Shown here one piece after another: positions 39,509 to 47,181 of a DNA stretch of 64,000 nt. Position 1 is the first letter of the stretch. Every line of letters begins with the position of its first letter. Under the pieces are notes generated by a model, which ran no database searches, was not told where the DNA came from, and saw only the letters and a list, made by a program, of their open reading frames with translations. The stretch comes from Woeseiaceae bacterium (GTDB lineage: Bacteria > Pseudomonadota > Gammaproteobacteria > Steroidobacterales > Woeseiaceae), in contig JASJCM010000014.1 in NCBI GenBank assembly GCA_030065985.1, positions 1-64,000 on the forward strand, written 5' to 3'. Made by a program: the position numbers and the translations under genes.

Positions 39509-40792
39509 TCAGTGCCTCGTATGACTGATTAGCGTTTCCAGGTAGCGGGATTTGAGCTGCTCGCTTGCCAGGAACTGCTTGATGGGCGGCAGCTTCAGGA
39601 TCACACCCAATACCGCTGCCATCGCACGGTGACTCCACAGGACGTGGTTGTCGAAAATCAGGTTCTGCAATTTGCCCCGCTCAATCGCCATGACCACGGC
39701 CCGGTGCGTGCCGTTCAGCGGTGTAAGAACGCGTTTCGGTCGTGATTCCAGAGACAGGCTGTCGTGCTTGTTGCAGCTGCGTATGCACACGCCGCAGCCC
39801 AGGCAGAGCTCTTCGTTCAAGCGGGCAATTTTCATCTTGGGCTTTTCCGGATCGTGGGATGAAACCAGGGTCATTGCCTCGACCGGGCAGACGTTCACGC
39901 ATTTGCCGCAACCGTTGCAGGTTTCCTCGTCGATAACCGGGATGAAGTTGGTTGTGTGTACGGGGTTGAGAATGGCAAAACGGCGTGCGGCGATCATGGC
40001 CTCGCAACAGCAGCTGCAGCAATTGCAGATGAAGTTGACATGCTCACGGACATTTTCCCCAAACTGCACGAGGTTGTTGTCGTAAGCCTCTTGCAGCAGG
40101 TCGTGACATTCCTCCTTGTCGATCTCACGAGCGACACCGTGTCTCGTCAGCGAGGACGCGGTGGTGTTGAACGTCATGCAAATATCCTGCGGTGCAGAAC
40201 ACGCCTTGCCCATGTGTTCCATTTTGTGGCGGCAATAACAGCGTCCCACACCGATATGGCTCGCAGTTTCGATCACCTCGCTGGCGCGCTCGTAATCCAG
40301 CACGTGAAGTGCATTTTCTTCAGACAAGGCAGGTTCACTGACGAAGGCTCGACCCAACTGCGTGTCACCACGAGTGAACAGCTCCCTGATGAAGTCCTCC
40401 TCGACATTCATATACTCATGAAATAGCTCGCTCAGTAATTTCTGGTCGAGGTCATCGCGAACCCGCATCAGAGAGAATTCGAAGAACCCGGCCATAGGCG
40501 GCGGCAGGGCATAGACCGTCTCACCGTTTTGCTCGAAGTCGACCAGAATGGCCCTGTCGGCCAGCTCATCGAGCGTGTTCTGCGTTTCGACGAGGTTCTT
40601 CTTCCAGATCCGACTGGCTTTTCTTGCCGTAAACGGCCTTATCGGCATCAATGAAACCAGGCCAGCTTCTTCTTCGCTGAACAGCATCGACAGGATATTG
40701 AAGAGCAGATCGGAAGGAGGCGCGCCCTGCGGAAAACGATTCAACCTGTCGGTAAGGGCGGAGTAACTCGTTTTCAGTGTTGTATGGGCCAC
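39509..40792 (-). CDS. Cysteine-rich 4Fe-4S protein
   Basis: A 427-residue iron-sulfur protein without a signal peptide. An N-terminal helical region (about 1-150) may be winged-helix-like. A conserved block CYCRHKMEHMGKAC with cysteines 185, 187, 198 and 205 follows. Next is the unusual run CNCCSCCC (256-263) and two ferredoxin-type 4Fe-4S motifs, CNGCGKCVNVCP (292-303) and CLGCGVCIRSC (330-340). The GTG start at 40792 follows GGAGGG; a longer frame to 40894 would add an unlikely segment. The role is unknown: an electron carrier or a redox-sensing protein. It is divergent from the beta-helix gene. Confidence 0.8.
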   Translation of the reverse strand: MAHTTLKTSYSALTDRLNRFPQGAPPSDLLFNILSMLFSEEEAGLVSLMPIRPFTARKASRIWKKNLVETQNTLDELADRAILVDFEQNGETVYALPPPMAGFFEFSLMRVRDDLDQKLLSELFHEYMNVEEDFIRELFTRGDTQLGRAFVSEPALSEENALHVLDYERASEVIETASHIGVGRCYCRHKMEHMGKACSAPQDICMTFNTTASSLTRHGVAREIDKEECHDLLQEAYDNNLVQFGENVREHVNFICNCCSCCCEAMIAARRFAILNPVHTTNFIPVIDEETCNGCGKCVNVCPVEAMTLVSSHDPEKPKMKIARLNEELCLGCGVCIRSCNKHDSLSLESRPKRVLTPLNGTHRAVVMAIERGKLQNLIFDNHVLWSHRAMAAVLGVILKLPPIKQFLASEQLKSRYLETLISHTRH

Positions 40793-41007
40793 GATGCAAA
40801 ACCCTCCAGCAATCTCCTGATCGTACCCCTGGTGCGGCGCACGAGGGTATATGGGAAATTGCGCATGTTCGGCGGCATCTTGCCGCTGTGCCAACCGTGA
40901 TCGACTCGCTAGTTCTACCTATAGCTGCCGGGCAAAAATGCGCATAGGGTCTAACTTACGTGCTGGGCCAATCTTGGGCTCCGGTCCCGCTCGTGTGGAG
41001 GTCTGCG

Positions 41008-43143
41008 ATGCGACCACATTTGCATGCTAGTCGCGGCTCGTTCCGGGTCGTCGGAACCACCTTCCTTTACGTCGTGATCCTTACCGGTCTCGCCAGTTGT
41101 GGCGATGGCAGCGGTGGTGGCGGTGTCGTTCCTCCGCAGCCTGCGATTACCGTCAATAGCCTGCTTGACGATGCTTCACCCCCGAGCGGCACGGTGACGT
41201 TTCGCTCGGCGCTGGCGGCCGCTTCGTCCGGACAGCCAATCACCTTCGATCCCACTTTGAACGGCGGCACGATTAACCTGATCTTCGTCGCCGAAGAACA
41301 CACCGTGCTGGTCGGCGAGGTCATGGGCTTTGACGCCGTCAACAACATGTCGTATCTGATCGGCTACCACGACCGGGACTACGGCAAGTCAGCTCTGTTC
41401 GCTGACAAGAATGTCGTTATCGACGCATCCAATCTGCCGGACGGCATAACGCTGAACTGGGACGGCGCGGATGCCGCAAGGGTCCTGGCCGTGTCCGGCG
41501 ACCTTACATTGACCAACGTAACGATTACCGGCGGTACCCTGGCGTTTGATGCAGCGGCAGACGTCGGCCAGCACCCGGACGACAACCAGACGTCGACGCT
41601 GGCCCGAGGCGCGGGCATCGCGGTCTGGGGTATCGCAACGCTTAACGACTGCGTCATCTATGACAACCACGGTGTCGGTGATGACAGCGATACATCTCGC
41701 GACGGCGGCGCCTACGGCGGTGGTGTGTATGCTGACACGGTCGTCATGGACGGCTGCATCGTCAGCGGTAACTCGATCTACGGCGGGGGCGCGGCCGGCG
41801 GCGGCGTGTTCTCTGTCGGCGGGCGCCATACCGGTGTTGATACGTCGTCGATACGTCGCTCAAGCATCACCGAGAACCGCATCTCAGGCCTGTTTGCTTA
41901 TGGCGGTGGCGTCTATTCGGATGGCGGCGGTATCGGCCGATCGACGCGCATTCATGTCGAGAACAGCACTCTTGCGAGAAATCTCGTCGAGCCGCCGCTG
42001 CTTCCTCCGTTCCTGTTTGGCCTGCTGGACATCGGTTACTGGCGCGGCGGCGGACTCTATATGTCCAACGGTTACATGCAGGTTCAAAGCAGCACAATCG
42101 TCGAGAACCAGGTCTTTGGCAAGCCGCGGACCACCGAGCTCGACAAGCCGAACATGGCCGGCGGCATCGCGGCGACAATCGGCAACGCACATGCTGTCGA
42201 AGACATGATTATTGGTCACTCGATCATCGTTGGAAACACTGTTCACGAGATCGATGGTGGTGGACCGGGCGGCTACACGATCAGCACTGTATATCCACAC
42301 GATATCTTCACCGGCTCTGTCTTCGAGTTCCGCAGCATGGGCCATAACCGGATCGGCGTCATCGATTTCAGCCAGATCCTGGTACCGATCGGTGAGCCCG
42401 GGTGGGCATCCCTCTCGAGGAAACACTATCCGCAGACGAACGACGAGCACGGTGTGTTGATTGATGATGTGCTTGGCGCCGCGCAGTTATCCACATACAT
42501 CAGCACGTCCGGCATATTGGCCGATCCTTTCGCAGTGCTTCACTATGAGCCGCAGGGCAGTGCGCTGGACCAGGTTCCCGGCAGCGGCTACGCAGTCACC
42601 GAGATCCTCGGCGAGCTGGTTGGGCCAACCGATGAAGGCCGGAACCCGCTTCTCATCCCACTGGTCCTGGACCAGATTGAATCGACTCACAGCCAGCCGG
42701 GCTTCGCAAGCGCTTTCAGAAGCCACTTCGAAGGATTCCTGTCGGACGTCGATCCGGACACTGCCGGTGCACAGCAGTACGCCAACTGTGGCGGCGCAAC
42801 GATCGATACGCTCGAGCAGGCATTTTGGTGCGGCCCCGCTCAGACCTGGCCACAACATGAGTTCAACCACGCTTACATCCATTTCTGGCATCACCTTGAC
42901 AAGGCACTTGCGAACGACATCCCGGGGGTCAACGTCGATCAGATCACGGGCGTCGGACCCGCAGCGATTAACGACGACATCTGGCTGTCGCTTTTCGGCC
43001 TCGGAGACAGCTTTTTCAACGGTGTTACCGTGCGTCTTGGCGAAACGACGCTCAGCGTTGCGCCAGTTACTGTCGATCAGCTGGGCAACTCCCGGCCGGC
43101 GGATCTGTCAGGCGATATCGGAGCAATCGAAGTCGACAACTAG
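41008..43143 (+). CDS. Parallel beta-helix lipoprotein
   Basis: The 711-residue protein has a lipoprotein signal (lipobox LASC) followed by a glycine linker. A CSLREA-like start region comes next (VNSLLDDASPPSGTVTFRSALAAA). A right-handed parallel beta-helix then spans about 130-430, with many GGG- and N-rich turns such as YGGGVYADTVVMDGCIVSGNS. The C-terminus ends DIGAIEVDN, the terminal pattern of choice-of-anchor Q proteins. It is likely exported and cell-surface or periplasmic; the substrate is unknown. GGAGG precedes the ATG at 41008. The frame at 40960 is longer but has no ribosome site. Confidence 0.78.
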   Translation: MRPHLHASRGSFRVVGTTFLYVVILTGLASCGDGSGGGGVVPPQPAITVNSLLDDASPPSGTVTFRSALAAASSGQPITFDPTLNGGTINLIFVAEEHTVLVGEVMGFDAVNNMSYLIGYHDRDYGKSALFADKNVVIDASNLPDGITLNWDGADAARVLAVSGDLTLTNVTITGGTLAFDAAADVGQHPDDNQTSTLARGAGIAVWGIATLNDCVIYDNHGVGDDSDTSRDGGAYGGGVYADTVVMDGCIVSGNSIYGGGAAGGGVFSVGGRHTGVDTSSIRRSSITENRISGLFAYGGGVYSDGGGIGRSTRIHVENSTLARNLVEPPLLPPFLFGLLDIGYWRGGGLYMSNGYMQVQSSTIVENQVFGKPRTTELDKPNMAGGIAATIGNAHAVEDMIIGHSIIVGNTVHEIDGGGPGGYTISTVYPHDIFTGSVFEFRSMGHNRIGVIDFSQILVPIGEPGWASLSRKHYPQTNDEHGVLIDDVLGAAQLSTYISTSGILADPFAVLHYEPQGSALDQVPGSGYAVTEILGELVGPTDEGRNPLLIPLVLDQIESTHSQPGFASAFRSHFEGFLSDVDPDTAGAQQYANCGGATIDTLEQAFWCGPAQTWPQHEFNHAYIHFWHHLDKALANDIPGVNVDQITGVGPAAINDDIWLSLFGLGDSFFNGVTVRLGETTLSVAPVTVDQLGNSRPADLSGDIGAIEVDN

Positions 43144-43185: not shown

Positions 43186-45411
43186 TCACCGGTCCAGTGT
43201 TGCCCGAATTGCGTCCAGCAGGTCGTGCGAGGAATACGGCTTTCGGAGCATTGTCTCGCGTAGATAGCCGTCTGTACTGACCGGGCCGGGACCGTCGGTG
43301 AATCCACTCGCCAACTGAATCTTGGTGTCCGGGTACTGCTTTGCAACGATAGCGGCTAGCCGAAAACCATCCATCCCTGGCATCAGGACATCGCTAAAGA
43401 CAAGGTCGACCTTTTCACGCTCGAGAATCTCAAGGGCCTCGGCACCGCTGCCGGCGGTTATCACTCTGTAGCCGTAGCTCGAAATAATGCTGGTGTTGAG
43501 TTTGAGAAGAGCTGGCTCGTCGTCGACGACCAGTATCGTTTCGGTTCCGAGTGCGGCCACCACCGGAGCCCGATCTTCACCTTCCAATACCTGGGCGGAT
43601 TCACGTTGGCGCGGAAAGTACAGGTCAACACGGGTTCCCTGACCGAGTTGCGAATGCACATTGACGGCGCCGTGGCTGCGCTCGACCATACCGTACACCT
43701 GACTAAGGCCGAGCCCCGTGCCTTGCCCCTCCTTGGTTGTAAAGAACGGCTCGAACATCCGGCTCCGCGTCTCGTCGCTCATGCCGCAGCCGCTATCGAC
43801 GACGCTCATCTCAACGTAATCGCCGGGCTCGAGCCCCAGGGTTTCCGCGTTGATTTCGTCAAGCGACTTGTTGCGTGTCCGGAACAAAAGTTTCCCTGTG
43901 TCGTTGATGGCGTGTGCAGCGTTAATAGCCATATTGATGATGGCATCGGCAAGATCGCCTTCGTCCAGCAATACCGGCCAAAGGTCCGACTCCAGTTCAT
44001 ACTCAAGGTCGATACGCGGAGTTAGCGATTTTTTCAACAGGTCCCGCTCGCGTTCCAGTAGCGAATTGATGTCGACACTTTCGCTTCTGCCACCGGATCT
44101 TCGTGAAAACGCCAAGAGCCGCTGCGAGAGGCGCGCACCGCGTTCCGTGGCTCTGGTGATCTCATCGACGTAGCCCGCCAACGTAGCATTCTTCTCGAGC
44201 TCGACTTCAAGCAAATTGGCGTAGCCAAGAATGATGCCGAGCAGGTTGTTGAAGTCGTGCGCCATGCCGCCGGTGAGTTTCCCGAGCGCATCCATTTTCT
44301 GCGTGCGGCGAATCTGCTCTTCTTGTTCTCTTGCGACAGTGAGGTCCTGACACGACGCAATGAATCGCTGTTCCGCGTCACTTGTCCGGGGCATTGAGGT
44401 CAGGTTCAGACGTACAGGAAATTGCTCGCCATTTTTGTGCAGCGCTTCAGTTTCTCGAGATGAGCCCGCCGTCGGAAGCTCGCGGGTCTCTACATCGTTC
44501 ACGAAGAGAGAATTTATTTTGCGACCGACTATCTCCTGTGCCGCATATTCGAACACCCTTTCGGCGCTCTTATTGAAGGACAGAATGGAACCGGTATCGT
44601 CGAATACCACGATCGCATCGCCGATACTGTCCAGCGTAATGGCCAGGTCCCGTTGCTGTGCGCGAAGCGCGTCAACCGCGTTGTCACGACTCTTGGCGGC
44701 AACGGCAAAGGCTCCAGCGAGCTCGTCGATTTCTCGGGTGCTTGAACCGACTGCCTTGAACCTTGCTTTCTCGCTTATTCCGTAGCGACGCAGGAAATCG
44801 GTGAATCGGGTCAATGGCGCCGTAATTCGCCGGCTCGAGGCGAGTCCCAATCCGATTGCAAGCAAGGCGATGACGAAACTCGTGAGCAGAGTCAGTCCCG
44901 ATGACCGCGATAGCCTTGCCGTGATATTGGATTGATTGATGCCGATGTATACCGTGGGCTCAAGGCCCTCGATCAGAGGAGCGTGGTACTCGTAAATCAG
45001 CTGCTCCCCTGTCCGGAACCTGCGACTAACATACAGGTCCTCGCGTTCTACCATCTGAAAATCCTGCCTCGCCAGATAGCGGGGAAACCCGACCTCGAAC
45101 GAATGAGCGAATACGCCCCCGTCTAGCCCTGTGACGAACAGATACTCAATTGGGTCGTTATCGCGCTGGATACTTTGCAGAAGGCTGGCCACTCGCAGAG
45201 CGTTACCGTCGATCACGTCGCGTACAACGGCGTCGCGTACGGAATTGACGATTGTCTGCGCAAGAATCGCTTCGGACTCTCGGTTGAGCGCGACCTGTTG
45301 GTAACGCGTTAGCCCAACGTGCGCAAGTGCACTGAGCGATACGATCGCGACAATGAGCAACAGGATGCGCGTCGCCAGCTTCAATCCGCCTGTTCCCTGA
45401 GCTGCTGCCAC
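43186..45411 (-). CDS. Hybrid sensor histidine kinase with receiver domain
   Basis: The 741-residue protein has membrane segments at about 11-32 and 170-190 around a periplasmic sensor region. HAMP (about 190-245) and PAS (about 258-370, LDSIGDAIVVFDDTGSI) domains follow. The HisKA histidine is in MAHDFNNLLGIILGY, and the ATPase has the N-box AIINMAINAAHAI and the G-boxes VVDSGCGM and GTGLGLSQVYG. A C-terminal receiver (about 620-741) has VVDDEP, phospho-acceptor D in VFSDVLMPG and K in LRKPY. The start is GTG at 45411, overlapping the upstream gene by 31 bp, or TTG at 45384 overlapping its stop by 4 bp. No separate response regulator or transmitter is adjacent. The upstream gene encodes a PhnD-like binding protein, likely its ligand sensor. 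Confidence 0.9.
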   Translation of the reverse strand: MAAAQGTGGLKLATRILLLIVAIVSLSALAHVGLTRYQQVALNRESEAILAQTIVNSVRDAVVRDVIDGNALRVASLLQSIQRDNDPIEYLFVTGLDGGVFAHSFEVGFPRYLARQDFQMVEREDLYVSRRFRTGEQLIYEYHAPLIEGLEPTVYIGINQSNITARLSRSSGLTLLTSFVIALLAIGLGLASSRRITAPLTRFTDFLRRYGISEKARFKAVGSSTREIDELAGAFAVAAKSRDNAVDALRAQQRDLAITLDSIGDAIVVFDDTGSILSFNKSAERVFEYAAQEIVGRKINSLFVNDVETRELPTAGSSRETEALHKNGEQFPVRLNLTSMPRTSDAEQRFIASCQDLTVAREQEEQIRRTQKMDALGKLTGGMAHDFNNLLGIILGYANLLEVELEKNATLAGYVDEITRATERGARLSQRLLAFSRRSGGRSESVDINSLLERERDLLKKSLTPRIDLEYELESDLWPVLLDEGDLADAIINMAINAAHAINDTGKLLFRTRNKSLDEINAETLGLEPGDYVEMSVVDSGCGMSDETRSRMFEPFFTTKEGQGTGLGLSQVYGMVERSHGAVNVHSQLGQGTRVDLYFPRQRESAQVLEGEDRAPVVAALGTETILVVDDEPALLKLNTSIISSYGYRVITAGSGAEALEILEREKVDLVFSDVLMPGMDGFRLAAIVAKQYPDTKIQLASGFTDGPGPVSTDGYLRETMLRKPYSSHDLLDAIRATLDR

Positions 45412-46352
45412 AAATCGAGCTCAACGAGCCACTCGTGCAGTTCGCGATAGTCCTCGTAGGTTGATCGCTGGAATCCGTTGGGCATCTCCGTCCTGTCCCA
45501 GTTATAAAGGTTTTCGCCGTGATCTCCTGAGGGATCGAATGCGATTAGCGCCTGCGTGACCAGCTGAATGACATCCTCGGGAACCGAAGCATTGGCGACG
45601 ATGCTGCTTGATGGGTATTCGTCGGAGTAGTGGATAATCTTGATTCGACCCTCACTGGCAAGTCTTTCGGCAAGTGTGTCCTGCAAAGCGGCGGCGTCAG
45701 CCCGACCCGAGACCACTGCCTCAGCAGCACTCTCGTGCGAATTGGTAAAGAAGTACGAGTCCAGCTCGTCGAGAGAGATAGCGTTCTGTCGCAGTTCGAT
45801 CCGCGGAATGAGGTGGCCCTGTGTCGAGTCGGAACTGCCAAAGGCGAGCCGCCGTCCCCGCAATTGCGAGATTTCCGTTAATGGGCTTTCTGGAGAAACG
45901 GCGAACACGCTTCGGTAGGTTGCCTTGTTCTTTTCGTTGAGACCGCGCGCGATCGAAATAGCGCCGTACTGATCGTTGGCCCGCAGAAAGCTGACGGCGC
46001 CCATTGCCGCAAACTGCGTGCGGTCCAGCCCCAGGTCATCAGACGTAGCGCTGCTGTTAGCCGCGAAATGCAGCTTGAAACGCAGCCCCGTTGCTTCCTC
46101 GAGGTAGCGCAGAAACGGCAGGTACTGCGCCGCGTCTTCCTGCGGACTTGAGCGCAAGTCGAACCCGAAATAATAGACGCCCGGCTGACGCGCGGGAGCT
46201 GGCGGGTGAAGAAGCTCGGCTTCGGCGAGCGCGTCATCGTCGTCAACGACAATGACGGGAGTAGTGTCCGCGTCGTGGCATGACGACATAGCGAAGCCGA
46301 TAGCGAAAATCGCGAAGAATGCCGCCCCCAGGCCTAGCGATTTATTGGACAT
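45381..46352 (-). CDS. PhnD-like periplasmic substrate-binding lipoprotein
   Basis: A phosphonate/phosphate-binding-type protein of 323 residues. It has a signal with lipobox SSC and then binding-protein motifs such as LPFLRYLEEATG, FAAMGAVSFLRAND and LAFGSSDSTQGHLIPRI. No ABC transporter permease or ATPase gene is near, so it is not a transport component. Instead it overlaps the kinase, and by analogy with TorT/TorS it probably presents a ligand to it. The ATG at 46352 is preferred over a TTG two codons earlier. It is divergent from the next gene, the starts touching within CATG. Confidence 0.85.
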   Translation of the reverse strand: MSNKSLGLGAAFFAIFAIGFAMSSCHDADTTPVIVVDDDDALAEAELLHPPAPARQPGVYYFGFDLRSSPQEDAAQYLPFLRYLEEATGLRFKLHFAANSSATSDDLGLDRTQFAAMGAVSFLRANDQYGAISIARGLNEKNKATYRSVFAVSPESPLTEISQLRGRRLAFGSSDSTQGHLIPRIELRQNAISLDELDSYFFTNSHESAAEAVVSGRADAAALQDTLAERLASEGRIKIIHYSDEYPSSSIVANASVPEDVIQLVTQALIAFDPSGDHGENLYNWDRTEMPNGFQRSTYEDYRELHEWLVELDLWQQLREQAD

Positions 46353-46434: not shown

Positions 46435-47181
46435 ATGGCGGGCCGAGAAAGCCTTGTTTTCCTCTCAGTCCTGTCCGACGATTCAGGTTCCCCGCTCGGT
46501 GTGGAGAGAGGTGTGTATCACAGCAGCGAGATTCGCTGGTTCTTCCGGGACGGTCCGCGGTGTGAAGTGGACCAGTGGTTCTCGAGTTGCGCCTTGGCTG
46601 TCACCGAGCCACCGCGCGTAGACAACTACATCATCCTGCCGCGCTGCAAAACAGCCGGCGTCAAGATTCGGCAGGGCAATATCGAAGTCAAAGCGCAGAC
46701 GCAGAACTCCGAGCTCCTCGAGATTTCGGATCGAGTCGGCGGATTCCAGGACGCCTGGGTGAAATGGTCTCGACCCGCAGCGAACCCGGACGCCGTATTT
46801 GCAGCGCCAAGCATTCCGGAGTGCTGGGCCTGCGTCGAAAAAGCCCGGGTACTGCGGCTGCTAACCCTTGAAGCGGAATCGCCTGATGAAATCGCCCCCG
46901 GGTCGAGGCACCTGCACGTCGGTTGCCAGGCGGAAAAGACCGACCTCAGAGTTATCGTCCTCGATACCGACGTCGAACCGTCGGCGCACGATTGGAAAAA
47001 GGCTGAGCGCTGGTGGAGCTTTTCGCTCGAGGCTTTCGGCCCGGCCAATGAGGTTGGCGGGTTGTTGCACCGCGCAGCGTCACACTGGTTCGGCCAGGAT
47101 TTCCCGGCGACGCTACTGGCCGAAGATTCGATGTCCTATCCCGAATGGCTCGCGCGCCTGGAGCAAAAAGCGGCGGCCTGA
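46435..47181 (+). CDS. Unrecognised protein, possibly CYTH-like
   Basis: I do not recognise this protein with certainty. It has about 248 residues from 46435. The N-terminal half has an alternating pattern of charged residues such as SSEIRWFF, DNYIILP and VKIRQGNIEVKAQ. This faintly resembles the ExExK/KxRxG layout of CYTH triphosphate tunnel enzymes, but the match is weak. No signal peptide or membrane segment is clear from this start. Longer starts at 46351 or 46252 would overlap the divergent PhnD-like gene. It may be unrelated to the sensor pair. Confidence 0.55.
   Translation: MAGRESLVFLSVLSDDSGSPLGVERGVYHSSEIRWFFRDGPRCEVDQWFSSCALAVTEPPRVDNYIILPRCKTAGVKIRQGNIEVKAQTQNSELLEISDRVGGFQDAWVKWSRPAANPDAVFAAPSIPECWACVEKARVLRLLTLEAESPDEIAPGSRHLHVGCQAEKTDLRVIVLDTDVEPSAHDWKKAERWWSFSLEAFGPANEVGGLLHRAASHWFGQDFPATLLAEDSMSYPEWLARLEQKAAA

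What the first reader, a model, noticed from the sequence alone, without database searches (positions are those of the whole stretch)
45381..46352. PhnD-like lipoprotein coupled to a hybrid histidine kinase
The binding-protein gene and the kinase overlap by 31 bp (GTG start) or 4 bp (TTG start), and no ABC transporter genes are near. A dedicated periplasmic sensor that feeds a membrane kinase is known for TorT/TorS. This version combines a PhnD-type binding protein with a PAS-containing hybrid kinase whose partner transmitter is unknown.
Basis: partly seen in the sequence, partly recalled or inferred. Interest (0 to 1): 0.6.

Follow-up and report, generated by a model that had tools for sequence, protein, structure and literature searches.

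The report
Binding lipoprotein dedicated to sensor kinase
A bacterium carries a membrane-tethered binding protein, of a kind usually tied to nutrient importers, whose gene overlaps that of a sensor kinase; the same pair recurs in many other bacteria, where the sensor half is sometimes wired to other outputs such as swimming control or a second messenger.

Summary
A PhnD-fold lipoprotein (45381-46352, -) overlaps a hybrid histidine kinase by 4 bp (TTG start, 45384). The pair is conserved. In a motif-seeded scan of 84,980 species genomes, 47 of 51 loci with a relative (40-53% identity) have a homologue of this kinase's sensor module as the next gene downstream. Of the other four, one is cut by the contig end and three carry a chemoreceptor. 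A regex found no ABC-transporter ATPase in the 51 loci (many cut short), and no PhnE-type permease was found in the 84% complete genome.

The relatives form their own clade, apart from transporter PhnD/PtxB and an AioX-like comparator. They keep the oxyanion-head residues (Y146, S176, T177, H206) but lack AioX's arsenite cysteine (Gly in 53/53) and the phosphite-capping tyrosine (Ser in 52/53). The kinase's sensor is a single Cache domain. Outputs in the 51 loci: 40 histidine kinases, 2 GGDEF-EAL, 1 HD-GYP, 3 chemoreceptors, 5 cut or unclear.

Best reading: the ligand-loaded lipoprotein docks on the Cache domain and sets kinase activity. Docking, ligand and the downstream partner are inferred, not shown. 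Closest precedent is AioX/ArrX-AioS rather than TorT/TorS. New variant of a known kind.

The parts
45381..46352 (-). PhnD-fold binding lipoprotein gene (323 aa, ATG 46352, stop TGA 45381-45383)
   Evidence: PF12974 1.5e-51; TIGR01098 120 bits over cut-off 112; AlphaFold pLDDT 91.6, Foldseek best PtxB/ArrX/PhnD/AioX
46278..46280 (-). candidate lipidation cysteine C25 (MSSC), followed by a linker of about 37 residues before the folded domain
   Evidence: sequence; Cys at this alignment column in 45 of 53 rows
45447..46169 (-). ligand-binding domain (PF12974); pocket positions Y146, S176, T177, Q178, H206, Q224, S249
43186..45384 (-). hybrid histidine kinase gene, TTG start (732 aa)
   Evidence: start from homologue comparison
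45381..45384 (-). 4-bp TTGA overlap of the two genes
   Evidence: 29 of 48 homologous pairs have a 4-bp overlap
44920..45306 (-). periplasmic single-Cache sensor domain between two membrane helices (approximate limits), motif FAHSFEVGFP
   Evidence: AlphaFold pLDDT 87.9; Foldseek matches to WalK, KinD and CitA sensor domains, E 8e-5 to 2e-3; sCache_3_2 hit in 4 homologues L082, L087, L105, L117, not in the window kinase at the threshold used
44338..44619 (-). cytoplasmic PAS domain
   Evidence: PF13426 1.8e-11
44095..44286 (-). HisKA dimerisation/phosphoacceptor domain, motif MAHDFNN
   Evidence: PF00512 1.8e-8
43606..43965 (-). HATPase_c catalytic domain (NAAHAI, DSGCGM, GTGLGL motifs)
   Evidence: PF02518 4.5e-17
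43204..43536 (-). C-terminal receiver domain (FSDVLMP)
   Evidence: PF00072 5.5e-19

Best explanation
A two-gene sensory unit. The lipoprotein is held near the membrane by its lipid, binds a small oxyanion-headed ligand in the periplasm, and in its closed form docks on the single Cache domain of the co-translated kinase. The Cache-HAMP-PAS relay then sets autophosphorylation of the kinase and phosphotransfer to its own receiver and, probably, to a response regulator encoded elsewhere. Shown here: overlapping genes, conservation of the pair, predicted folds of both periplasmic parts, complete kinase motifs, no transporter partner found. Inferred: lipidation, docking, ligand dependence, direction of regulation, downstream partner (a REC-EAL c-di-GMP phosphodiesterase is the best lead). 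The ligand is unknown; the pocket argues against arsenite and against PtxB-like phosphite.
For: 4-bp overlap in 29 of 48. Binding-protein and sensor distances covary, Spearman 0.62 over 48 pairs, 0 of 1000 permutations as high. Regex for ABC ATPases in the 51 loci: one match, read by eye as UvrA. The PhnE model finds nothing in the genome although it rings in 13 of 14 control genomes, over its cut-off in 6. All 28 family members sampled are one side of a branch, SH-aLRT 100. A second PhnD-like protein in the same genome also overlaps a hybrid kinase by 4 bp. REC-EAL beside the pair in L053, L074, L076; a homologue of the L053 one, 38% identical over residues 31-382 of 395, exists in the window's genome but elsewhere.
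Against: No docking or ligand binding was tested; no complex could be predicted. Covariation of distances with the sensor was not clearly above that with the HATPase domain (difference 0.11, bootstrap -0.09 to 0.32), so shared descent could explain it. The Cache domain could bind a ligand itself. The genome is 84% complete and many homologous loci are cut within 7 kb, so a missed transporter is not excluded. Seven of the ten members of the window's starred clade, the window among them, show no REC-EAL beside the pair; some of these are cut by contig ends. None of the 36 other same-genus genomes has a match above 26% identity, so the pair is accessory and its use in this organism unproven.
Confidence: 0.8

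Rival explanations
1. It is an arsenic-oxyanion sensor of the AioX/ArxX/ArrX type.
For: Same fold and same gene order binding protein-kinase; ArrX is among the best hits by sequence and structure. In four Chloroflexi-labelled loci a molybdopterin oxidoreductase lies close to the pair; the one scanned, in L119, resembles PhsA/DMSO/Arr enzymes below every cut-off listed.
Against: AioX C106 corresponds to G118, which is Gly in 53 of 53 rows, whereas an XSR-type relative on Sulfuricella plasmid pSCD has Cys there. That relative's kinase matches the family sensor profile mainly in HAMP. No arsenic enzyme or sigma-54 regulator among the six neighbours scanned or seen by eye at 28-64 kb.
Confidence: 0.07
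2. The lipoprotein is an ordinary phosphonate/phosphite importer subunit that happens to lie beside a kinase.
For: TIGR01098 is met (120 against 112 bits), which is how pipelines would name it; best PDB sequence hit is phosphite-binding PtxB.
Against: In the 50 loci of the scan where a downstream gene is visible, 47 have a receptor with this sensor and 3 a chemoreceptor; the ABC-ATPase regex gave only a UvrA-like match; PhnE not found. By contrast 7 of the 8 plasmid loci with a PhnD-like match that I fetched, of 25 listed and 772 matching, have phnE in the same gene row; the eighth has a kinase.
Confidence: 0.05
3. The two proteins work together, but otherwise: the ligand-free lipoprotein holds the kinase in one state and ligand releases it, or the Cache domain senses its own ligand and the lipoprotein only modulates.
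For: Apo-form regulation by binding proteins has precedents (recalled); the sensor models as a complete Cache fold.
Against: Nothing here decides the sign. H94, F96 and P101, kept in 90% or more of 48 receptors, could be a docking or a ligand site.
Confidence: 0.15

Closest known systems
AioX-AioS-AioR / ArxXSR / ArrXSR
   Same: PhnD-fold periplasmic protein encoded directly beside a sensor histidine kinase; Tyr, Ser and His oxyanion residues kept
   Different: Arsenite Cys106 position is Gly118; Ser163 position Gln178 and Asp210 position Gln224; different kinase sensor by profile (one comparator, L137); hybrid kinase; varied outputs; candidate lipoprotein
TtrS / ThsS (PhnD-like domain inside the kinase)
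   Same: PhnD-like periplasmic input for a histidine kinase
   Different: There one protein; here a separate lipoprotein and a kinase whose own sensor is a Cache domain
TorT-TorS, LuxP-LuxQ, BctC-BctE
   Same: Binding protein stimulates a membrane kinase (TorS and LuxQ are hybrid kinases, recalled)
   Different: Binding proteins of other families (TorT and LuxP structurally distinct from AioX, PMC5908839 section 14; BctC is of the TctC family, PMC9602780)
PtxB/PhnD/HtxB importer binding proteins
   Same: Fold and most oxyanion-head residues
   Different: No transporter genes found; capping tyrosine position is Ser249; PhnD equivalog model not met (103 of 261 bits)

Membership tests
AioX/ArxX/ArrX sensor family | PhnD-fold (class II) binding protein beside its own histidine kinase | tested here: met
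AioX/ArxX/ArrX sensor family | conserved pocket including Cys106 | tested here: not met
   Gly118 in 53 of 53; Cys present in the XSR-type comparator L137; mapping through PhnD Gly65 from PMC5908839 passages and the alignment
AioX/ArxX/ArrX sensor family | cognate regulator and arsenic enzyme genes beside the pair | tested here: not met
   none among six neighbouring proteins scanned and none seen by eye in ORF starts of 28-64 kb
AioX/ArxX/ArrX sensor family | binds arsenite or arsenate | not testable with these tools
   needs binding assay
phosphonate/phosphite ABC importer binding protein | PF12974 and TIGR01098 | tested here: met
   175.6 and 120 bits, both over cut-off
phosphonate/phosphite ABC importer binding protein | PhnD equivalog TIGR03431 | tested here: not met
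   103.4 against 261.1 bits
phosphonate/phosphite ABC importer binding protein | phnC/phnE partner genes | tested here: not met
   no PhnE match in the genome (84% complete); ABC-ATPase regex in 51 homologous loci gave only a UvrA-like match (flanks of 7 kb or less)
phosphonate/phosphite ABC importer binding protein | phosphite-capping tyrosine (Te_PtxB Y208) | tested here: not met
   Ser249 in 52 of 53, Gly in one; PMC5700983 passages; alignment
receptors stimulated by binding proteins (general kind) | binding protein co-conserved with a receptor that has an extracytoplasmic domain | tested here: met
receptors stimulated by binding proteins (general kind) | ligand-dependent docking and activation | not testable with these tools
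   needs experiment
TtrS/ThsS | PhnD-like domain within the kinase | tested here: not met
   kinase has no PF12974 match

The most novel reading that the evidence does not exclude
A portable sensory cassette: one clade of mostly tethered PhnD-fold proteins with a single-Cache receptor module, spread over several phyla and plugged into histidine kinases, hybrid kinases, GGDEF-EAL and HD-GYP proteins and chemoreceptors, reading an undescribed oxyanion-type ligand through a Gln178/Gln224 pocket and often steering c-di-GMP and motility.
Probability: 0.4. Interest if true: 0.7.

Novelty: new variant of a known kind. Interest (0 to 1): 0.5.

Why it matters
Pipelines would call this protein an ABC importer subunit (TIGR01098 is met), yet throughout the clade sampled it sits with a receptor and no transporter was seen. 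The 2018 AioX paper stated that AioX orthologues are the only signalling members of this fold family; this clade, and the more distant kinase-coupled PhnD-like proteins met on the way, suggest that signalling use is wider. One clade joined to several output classes gives a natural series for asking how a binding protein reads out through a Cache domain, and a defined set of proteins for ligand screening.

Tried and rejected
Disulfide idea: the window lacks two cysteines (209, 221) present in the nine other members of the first alignment. In the wider set C209 is in 44 and C221 in 29 of 53, so concerted loss of a disulfide is not supported; dropped.

Horizontal arrival: none of the 36 other same-genus genomes has a match above 26% identity, and the order set (246 genomes, E up to 1e-10) gave none above 30% besides the window. 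But I could not show an empty site: the one contig I fetched for it (G006) ends too soon, and the G+C of the two genes (0.58, 0.57) is only a little under the window's 0.60. Left open.

Ligand from neighbours: clustering of flanking genes (clusters of 3 or more loci shown) gave a large cluster of response regulators and kinases, a PAS-chemoreceptor cluster in four loci, an apparently antisense ORF, and a molybdoenzyme set in up to four Chloroflexi-labelled loci; no metabolic gene common to the family.

A selenocysteine suspicion about the ferredoxin-like neighbour (39509-40894), raised by in-frame TGA codons in relatives, was rejected: in the two relatives aligned the TGA lies upstream of the likely start.

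Co-evolution specific to a docking partner: not separable from shared descent.

Limits: titles of the loci are MAG titles and may be misbinned; the genome-contig scan seeds on two motifs, P[QHI]EDA[RA]QY and Y[NH]W[DHE][KR]TEM, so conservation at those residues is partly selected for; several loci are near relatives of each other.
Full report
WHAT IS THERE. The gene at 45381-46352 (-) encodes a 323-residue protein with a lipobox-like cysteine and a PF12974 domain (175.6 bits, cut-off 27). Its stop codon overlaps the start of a hybrid histidine kinase (43186-45384, -) with PAS, HisKA, HATPase_c and receiver domains and the usual catalytic motifs. The window is part of contig C60 of a 2.77-Mb, 84% complete genome. 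The six neighbours scanned with Pfam are a ferredoxin-like protein, cytochrome c', a cytochrome c and three proteins without a match.

NO TRANSPORTER FOUND. The PhnE model finds nothing in this genome, although it rings in 13 of 14 control genomes, over its cut-off in 6. One other PF12974 protein was found in the genome, and it too overlaps a hybrid kinase by 4 bp (kinase domains). The sensor region of that kinase shows no convincing match to the sensor profile of this family.

THE PAIR IS CONSERVED. Of the 36 other same-genus genomes, two have a match, at 23% and 26% identity. The order set (246 genomes, E up to 1e-10) gave nothing above 30% besides the window. In the class set (369 genomes with the window's own) 10 others carry a relative at 46-55% identity, one of them truncated. 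For nine the contig shows the downstream gene, and in nine of nine it matches the sensor half of the window kinase. In 47 of 51 a tblastn match to the window kinase's residues 1-255 lies in the next gene downstream, once after a gap of 294 bp (L096). L089 is cut by its contig end; L116, L117 and L120 have a chemoreceptor instead. The sensor of these three did not match the window sensor in tblastn; that of L117 hits sCache_3_2, the Cache family also hit by three kinases of the set.

ONE INPUT, SEVERAL OUTPUTS. Pfam on the downstream proteins of the 51 loci: 14 hybrid kinases with receiver; 19 HisKA kinases without receiver in the frame seen (L099 is cut by its contig); 4 HisKA_3 kinases; 1 HisKA_2; 2 further frames with HisKA but no HATPase (L084 cut by its contig, L098 with HisKA just below cut-off); 2 GGDEF-EAL (L094, L104); 1 HD-GYP (L080); 3 chemoreceptors (L117 with its signalling part in the next frame, by eye); 5 cut or without recognisable output (L073, L078, L085, L089, L121). 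On the tree of 53 binding proteins the four coarse outputs need at least 4 changes, finer classes 12. Many forks of that tree are weak (20 of 50 inner branches open).

PARTNER REGULATORS. Pfam on ten chosen neighbours: REC-EAL beside the pair in L053, L074 and L076, three of the ten members of the window's starred clade; REC-GGDEF-EAL next to the receptor in L122 and, second gene on, in L111; proteins with receiver and kinase domains in L075, L095 and, second gene on, L109; a lone receiver in L114; a LuxR-type regulator in L118, with similar genes by eye in L115, L119 and L123. The window's genome holds a homologue of the L053 REC-EAL protein (38% identity over residues 31-382 of 395) away from the pair. 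So c-di-GMP is a plausible output here, not a shown one.

FOLD AND POCKET. AlphaFold with 53 sequences gives pLDDT 91.6 for the lipoprotein. Foldseek's best hits are PtxB (5jvb, TM by target 0.82; 5o2j, 0.81), ArrX (6x8w, 0.85), PhnD (3p7i, 0.68) and AioX (6esk, 0.76). I mapped pocket positions by counting along the profile alignment with PtxB and PhnD, with the pocket descriptions in PMC5700983 (passages) and PMC5908839 (passages). PtxB Y94, S124, T125 and H155 correspond to Y146 (53 of 53), S176 (53), T177 (52) and H206 (52). PtxB S126 corresponds to Q178 (Q in 51), AioX Asp210/PhnD Asn175 to Q224 (53), AioX Cys106/PhnD Gly65 to G118 (53), and the phosphite-capping tyrosine to S249 (52). A direct alignment with transporter and kinase-coupled relatives agrees, and the XSR-type protein on Sulfuricella plasmid pSCD carries Cys and Asp at the AioX positions. 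W285, T288, E289, M290, G293 and F294 are invariant in 53 rows, but the scan was seeded partly on this motif. The clade stands apart: 28 sampled members are one side of a branch with SH-aLRT 100 (quick method, some long outside branches).

RECEIVING DOMAIN. The kinase's periplasmic part models as a single Cache domain (pLDDT 87.9), with moderate Foldseek matches to sensor domains of KinD, WalK and CitA (E 8e-5, 1.9e-4, 2.1e-3). H94, F96 and P101 of the FAHSFxxGFP loop are kept in 90% or more of 48 receptors, and G148 in all.

TETHER. A cysteine stands at the lipobox column in 45 of 53. By a looser rule 46 of 53 have a candidate lipid cysteine (two of them doubtful), 21 of these followed by Asp. 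Asp there is an inner-membrane retention signal in Gram-negatives (recalled), which would suit docking on an inner-membrane kinase; the window itself has His there. The seven without are L085, L097, L098, L121 and the three chemoreceptor-coupled ones.

HOW IT PROBABLY WORKS. Ligand closes the tethered lipoprotein; the closed form docks on the Cache domain; the HAMP-PAS relay changes kinase activity. Supported by pairing, overlap, distance covariation (Spearman 0.62, 0 of 1000 permutations, 48 pairs) and lack of a transporter. Covariation with the sensor is not clearly above that with the kinase core (difference 0.11, -0.09 to 0.32, 39 pairs), so it is weak evidence for contact.

WHAT IS KNOWN. 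PMC5908839 (passages and section 14) describes AioX/ArxX/ArrX and says AioX orthologues are the only signalling members of the family. PMC5408782 (passages) reports 838 sensor kinases with PhnD-like sensor domains, i.e. fused; PMC4618731 (passages) mentions a PF12974 domain in kinases of Azospirillum brasilense. PMC9602780 (passages) describes activation of kinases, chemoreceptors, diguanylate cyclases/phosphodiesterases and Ser/Thr kinases by binding proteins as widespread. In the titles, abstracts and passages that I saw from nine answered searches of the open-licence library I met no description of this clade; subscription papers are not held, and a review that might bear on it was not held. 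The mechanism is a known kind; the clade, its pocket and its spread over outputs look new to me.

WIDER CONTEXT. Of 11 more distant PhnD-like proteins examined (25-33% identity; the best such hits plus the second one of this genome), 8 have a Pfam-confirmed kinase directly downstream, L072 has none by eye, L070 lies near a contig end and L063 is unresolved. They were picked as nearest relatives, so this is no rate for the family at large.

Noticed in passing
L003:5607-8344 (-), contig C46 of the same genome: A second PhnD-like lipoprotein overlapping a hybrid kinase by 4 bp, scoring 199.8 bits against the putative selenate-binding model TIGR04553 (cut-off 250), downstream of what looks by eye like a sigma factor/anti-sigma pair; a same-genus relative (L064) has the same lipoprotein-kinase arrangement.
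   Followed up: partly
L118, L119, L123, L115 (Chloroflexi-labelled loci): The pair lies near a molybdopterin oxidoreductase and, where the contig reaches, a 4Fe-4S subunit, an NrfD-like membrane subunit and a TorD-like chaperone; in L119 these resemble PhsA/DMSO/Arr-type enzymes but stay below every NCBIfam cut-off listed.
   Followed up: partly
L137 (Sulfuricella denitrificans plasmid pSCD): PhnD-like protein, HAMP kinase and sigma-54 regulator beside a molybdopterin oxidoreductase: an XSR-type module annotated without a specific name.
   Followed up: partly
L116, L117, L120 (Desulfobacterales): Family members paired with chemoreceptors have a cleavable-looking signal peptide without lipid cysteine, unlike most of the kinase-coupled ones.
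   Followed up: partly
window 40960-43143 (+) and 46435-47181 (+): Two proteins flanking the pair without a Pfam or NCBIfam match at the thresholds used.
   Followed up: no
window 39509-40894 (-): The start in the ORF list is probably too far upstream: two relatives show a stop upstream of an apparent start near residue 35.
   Followed up: yes
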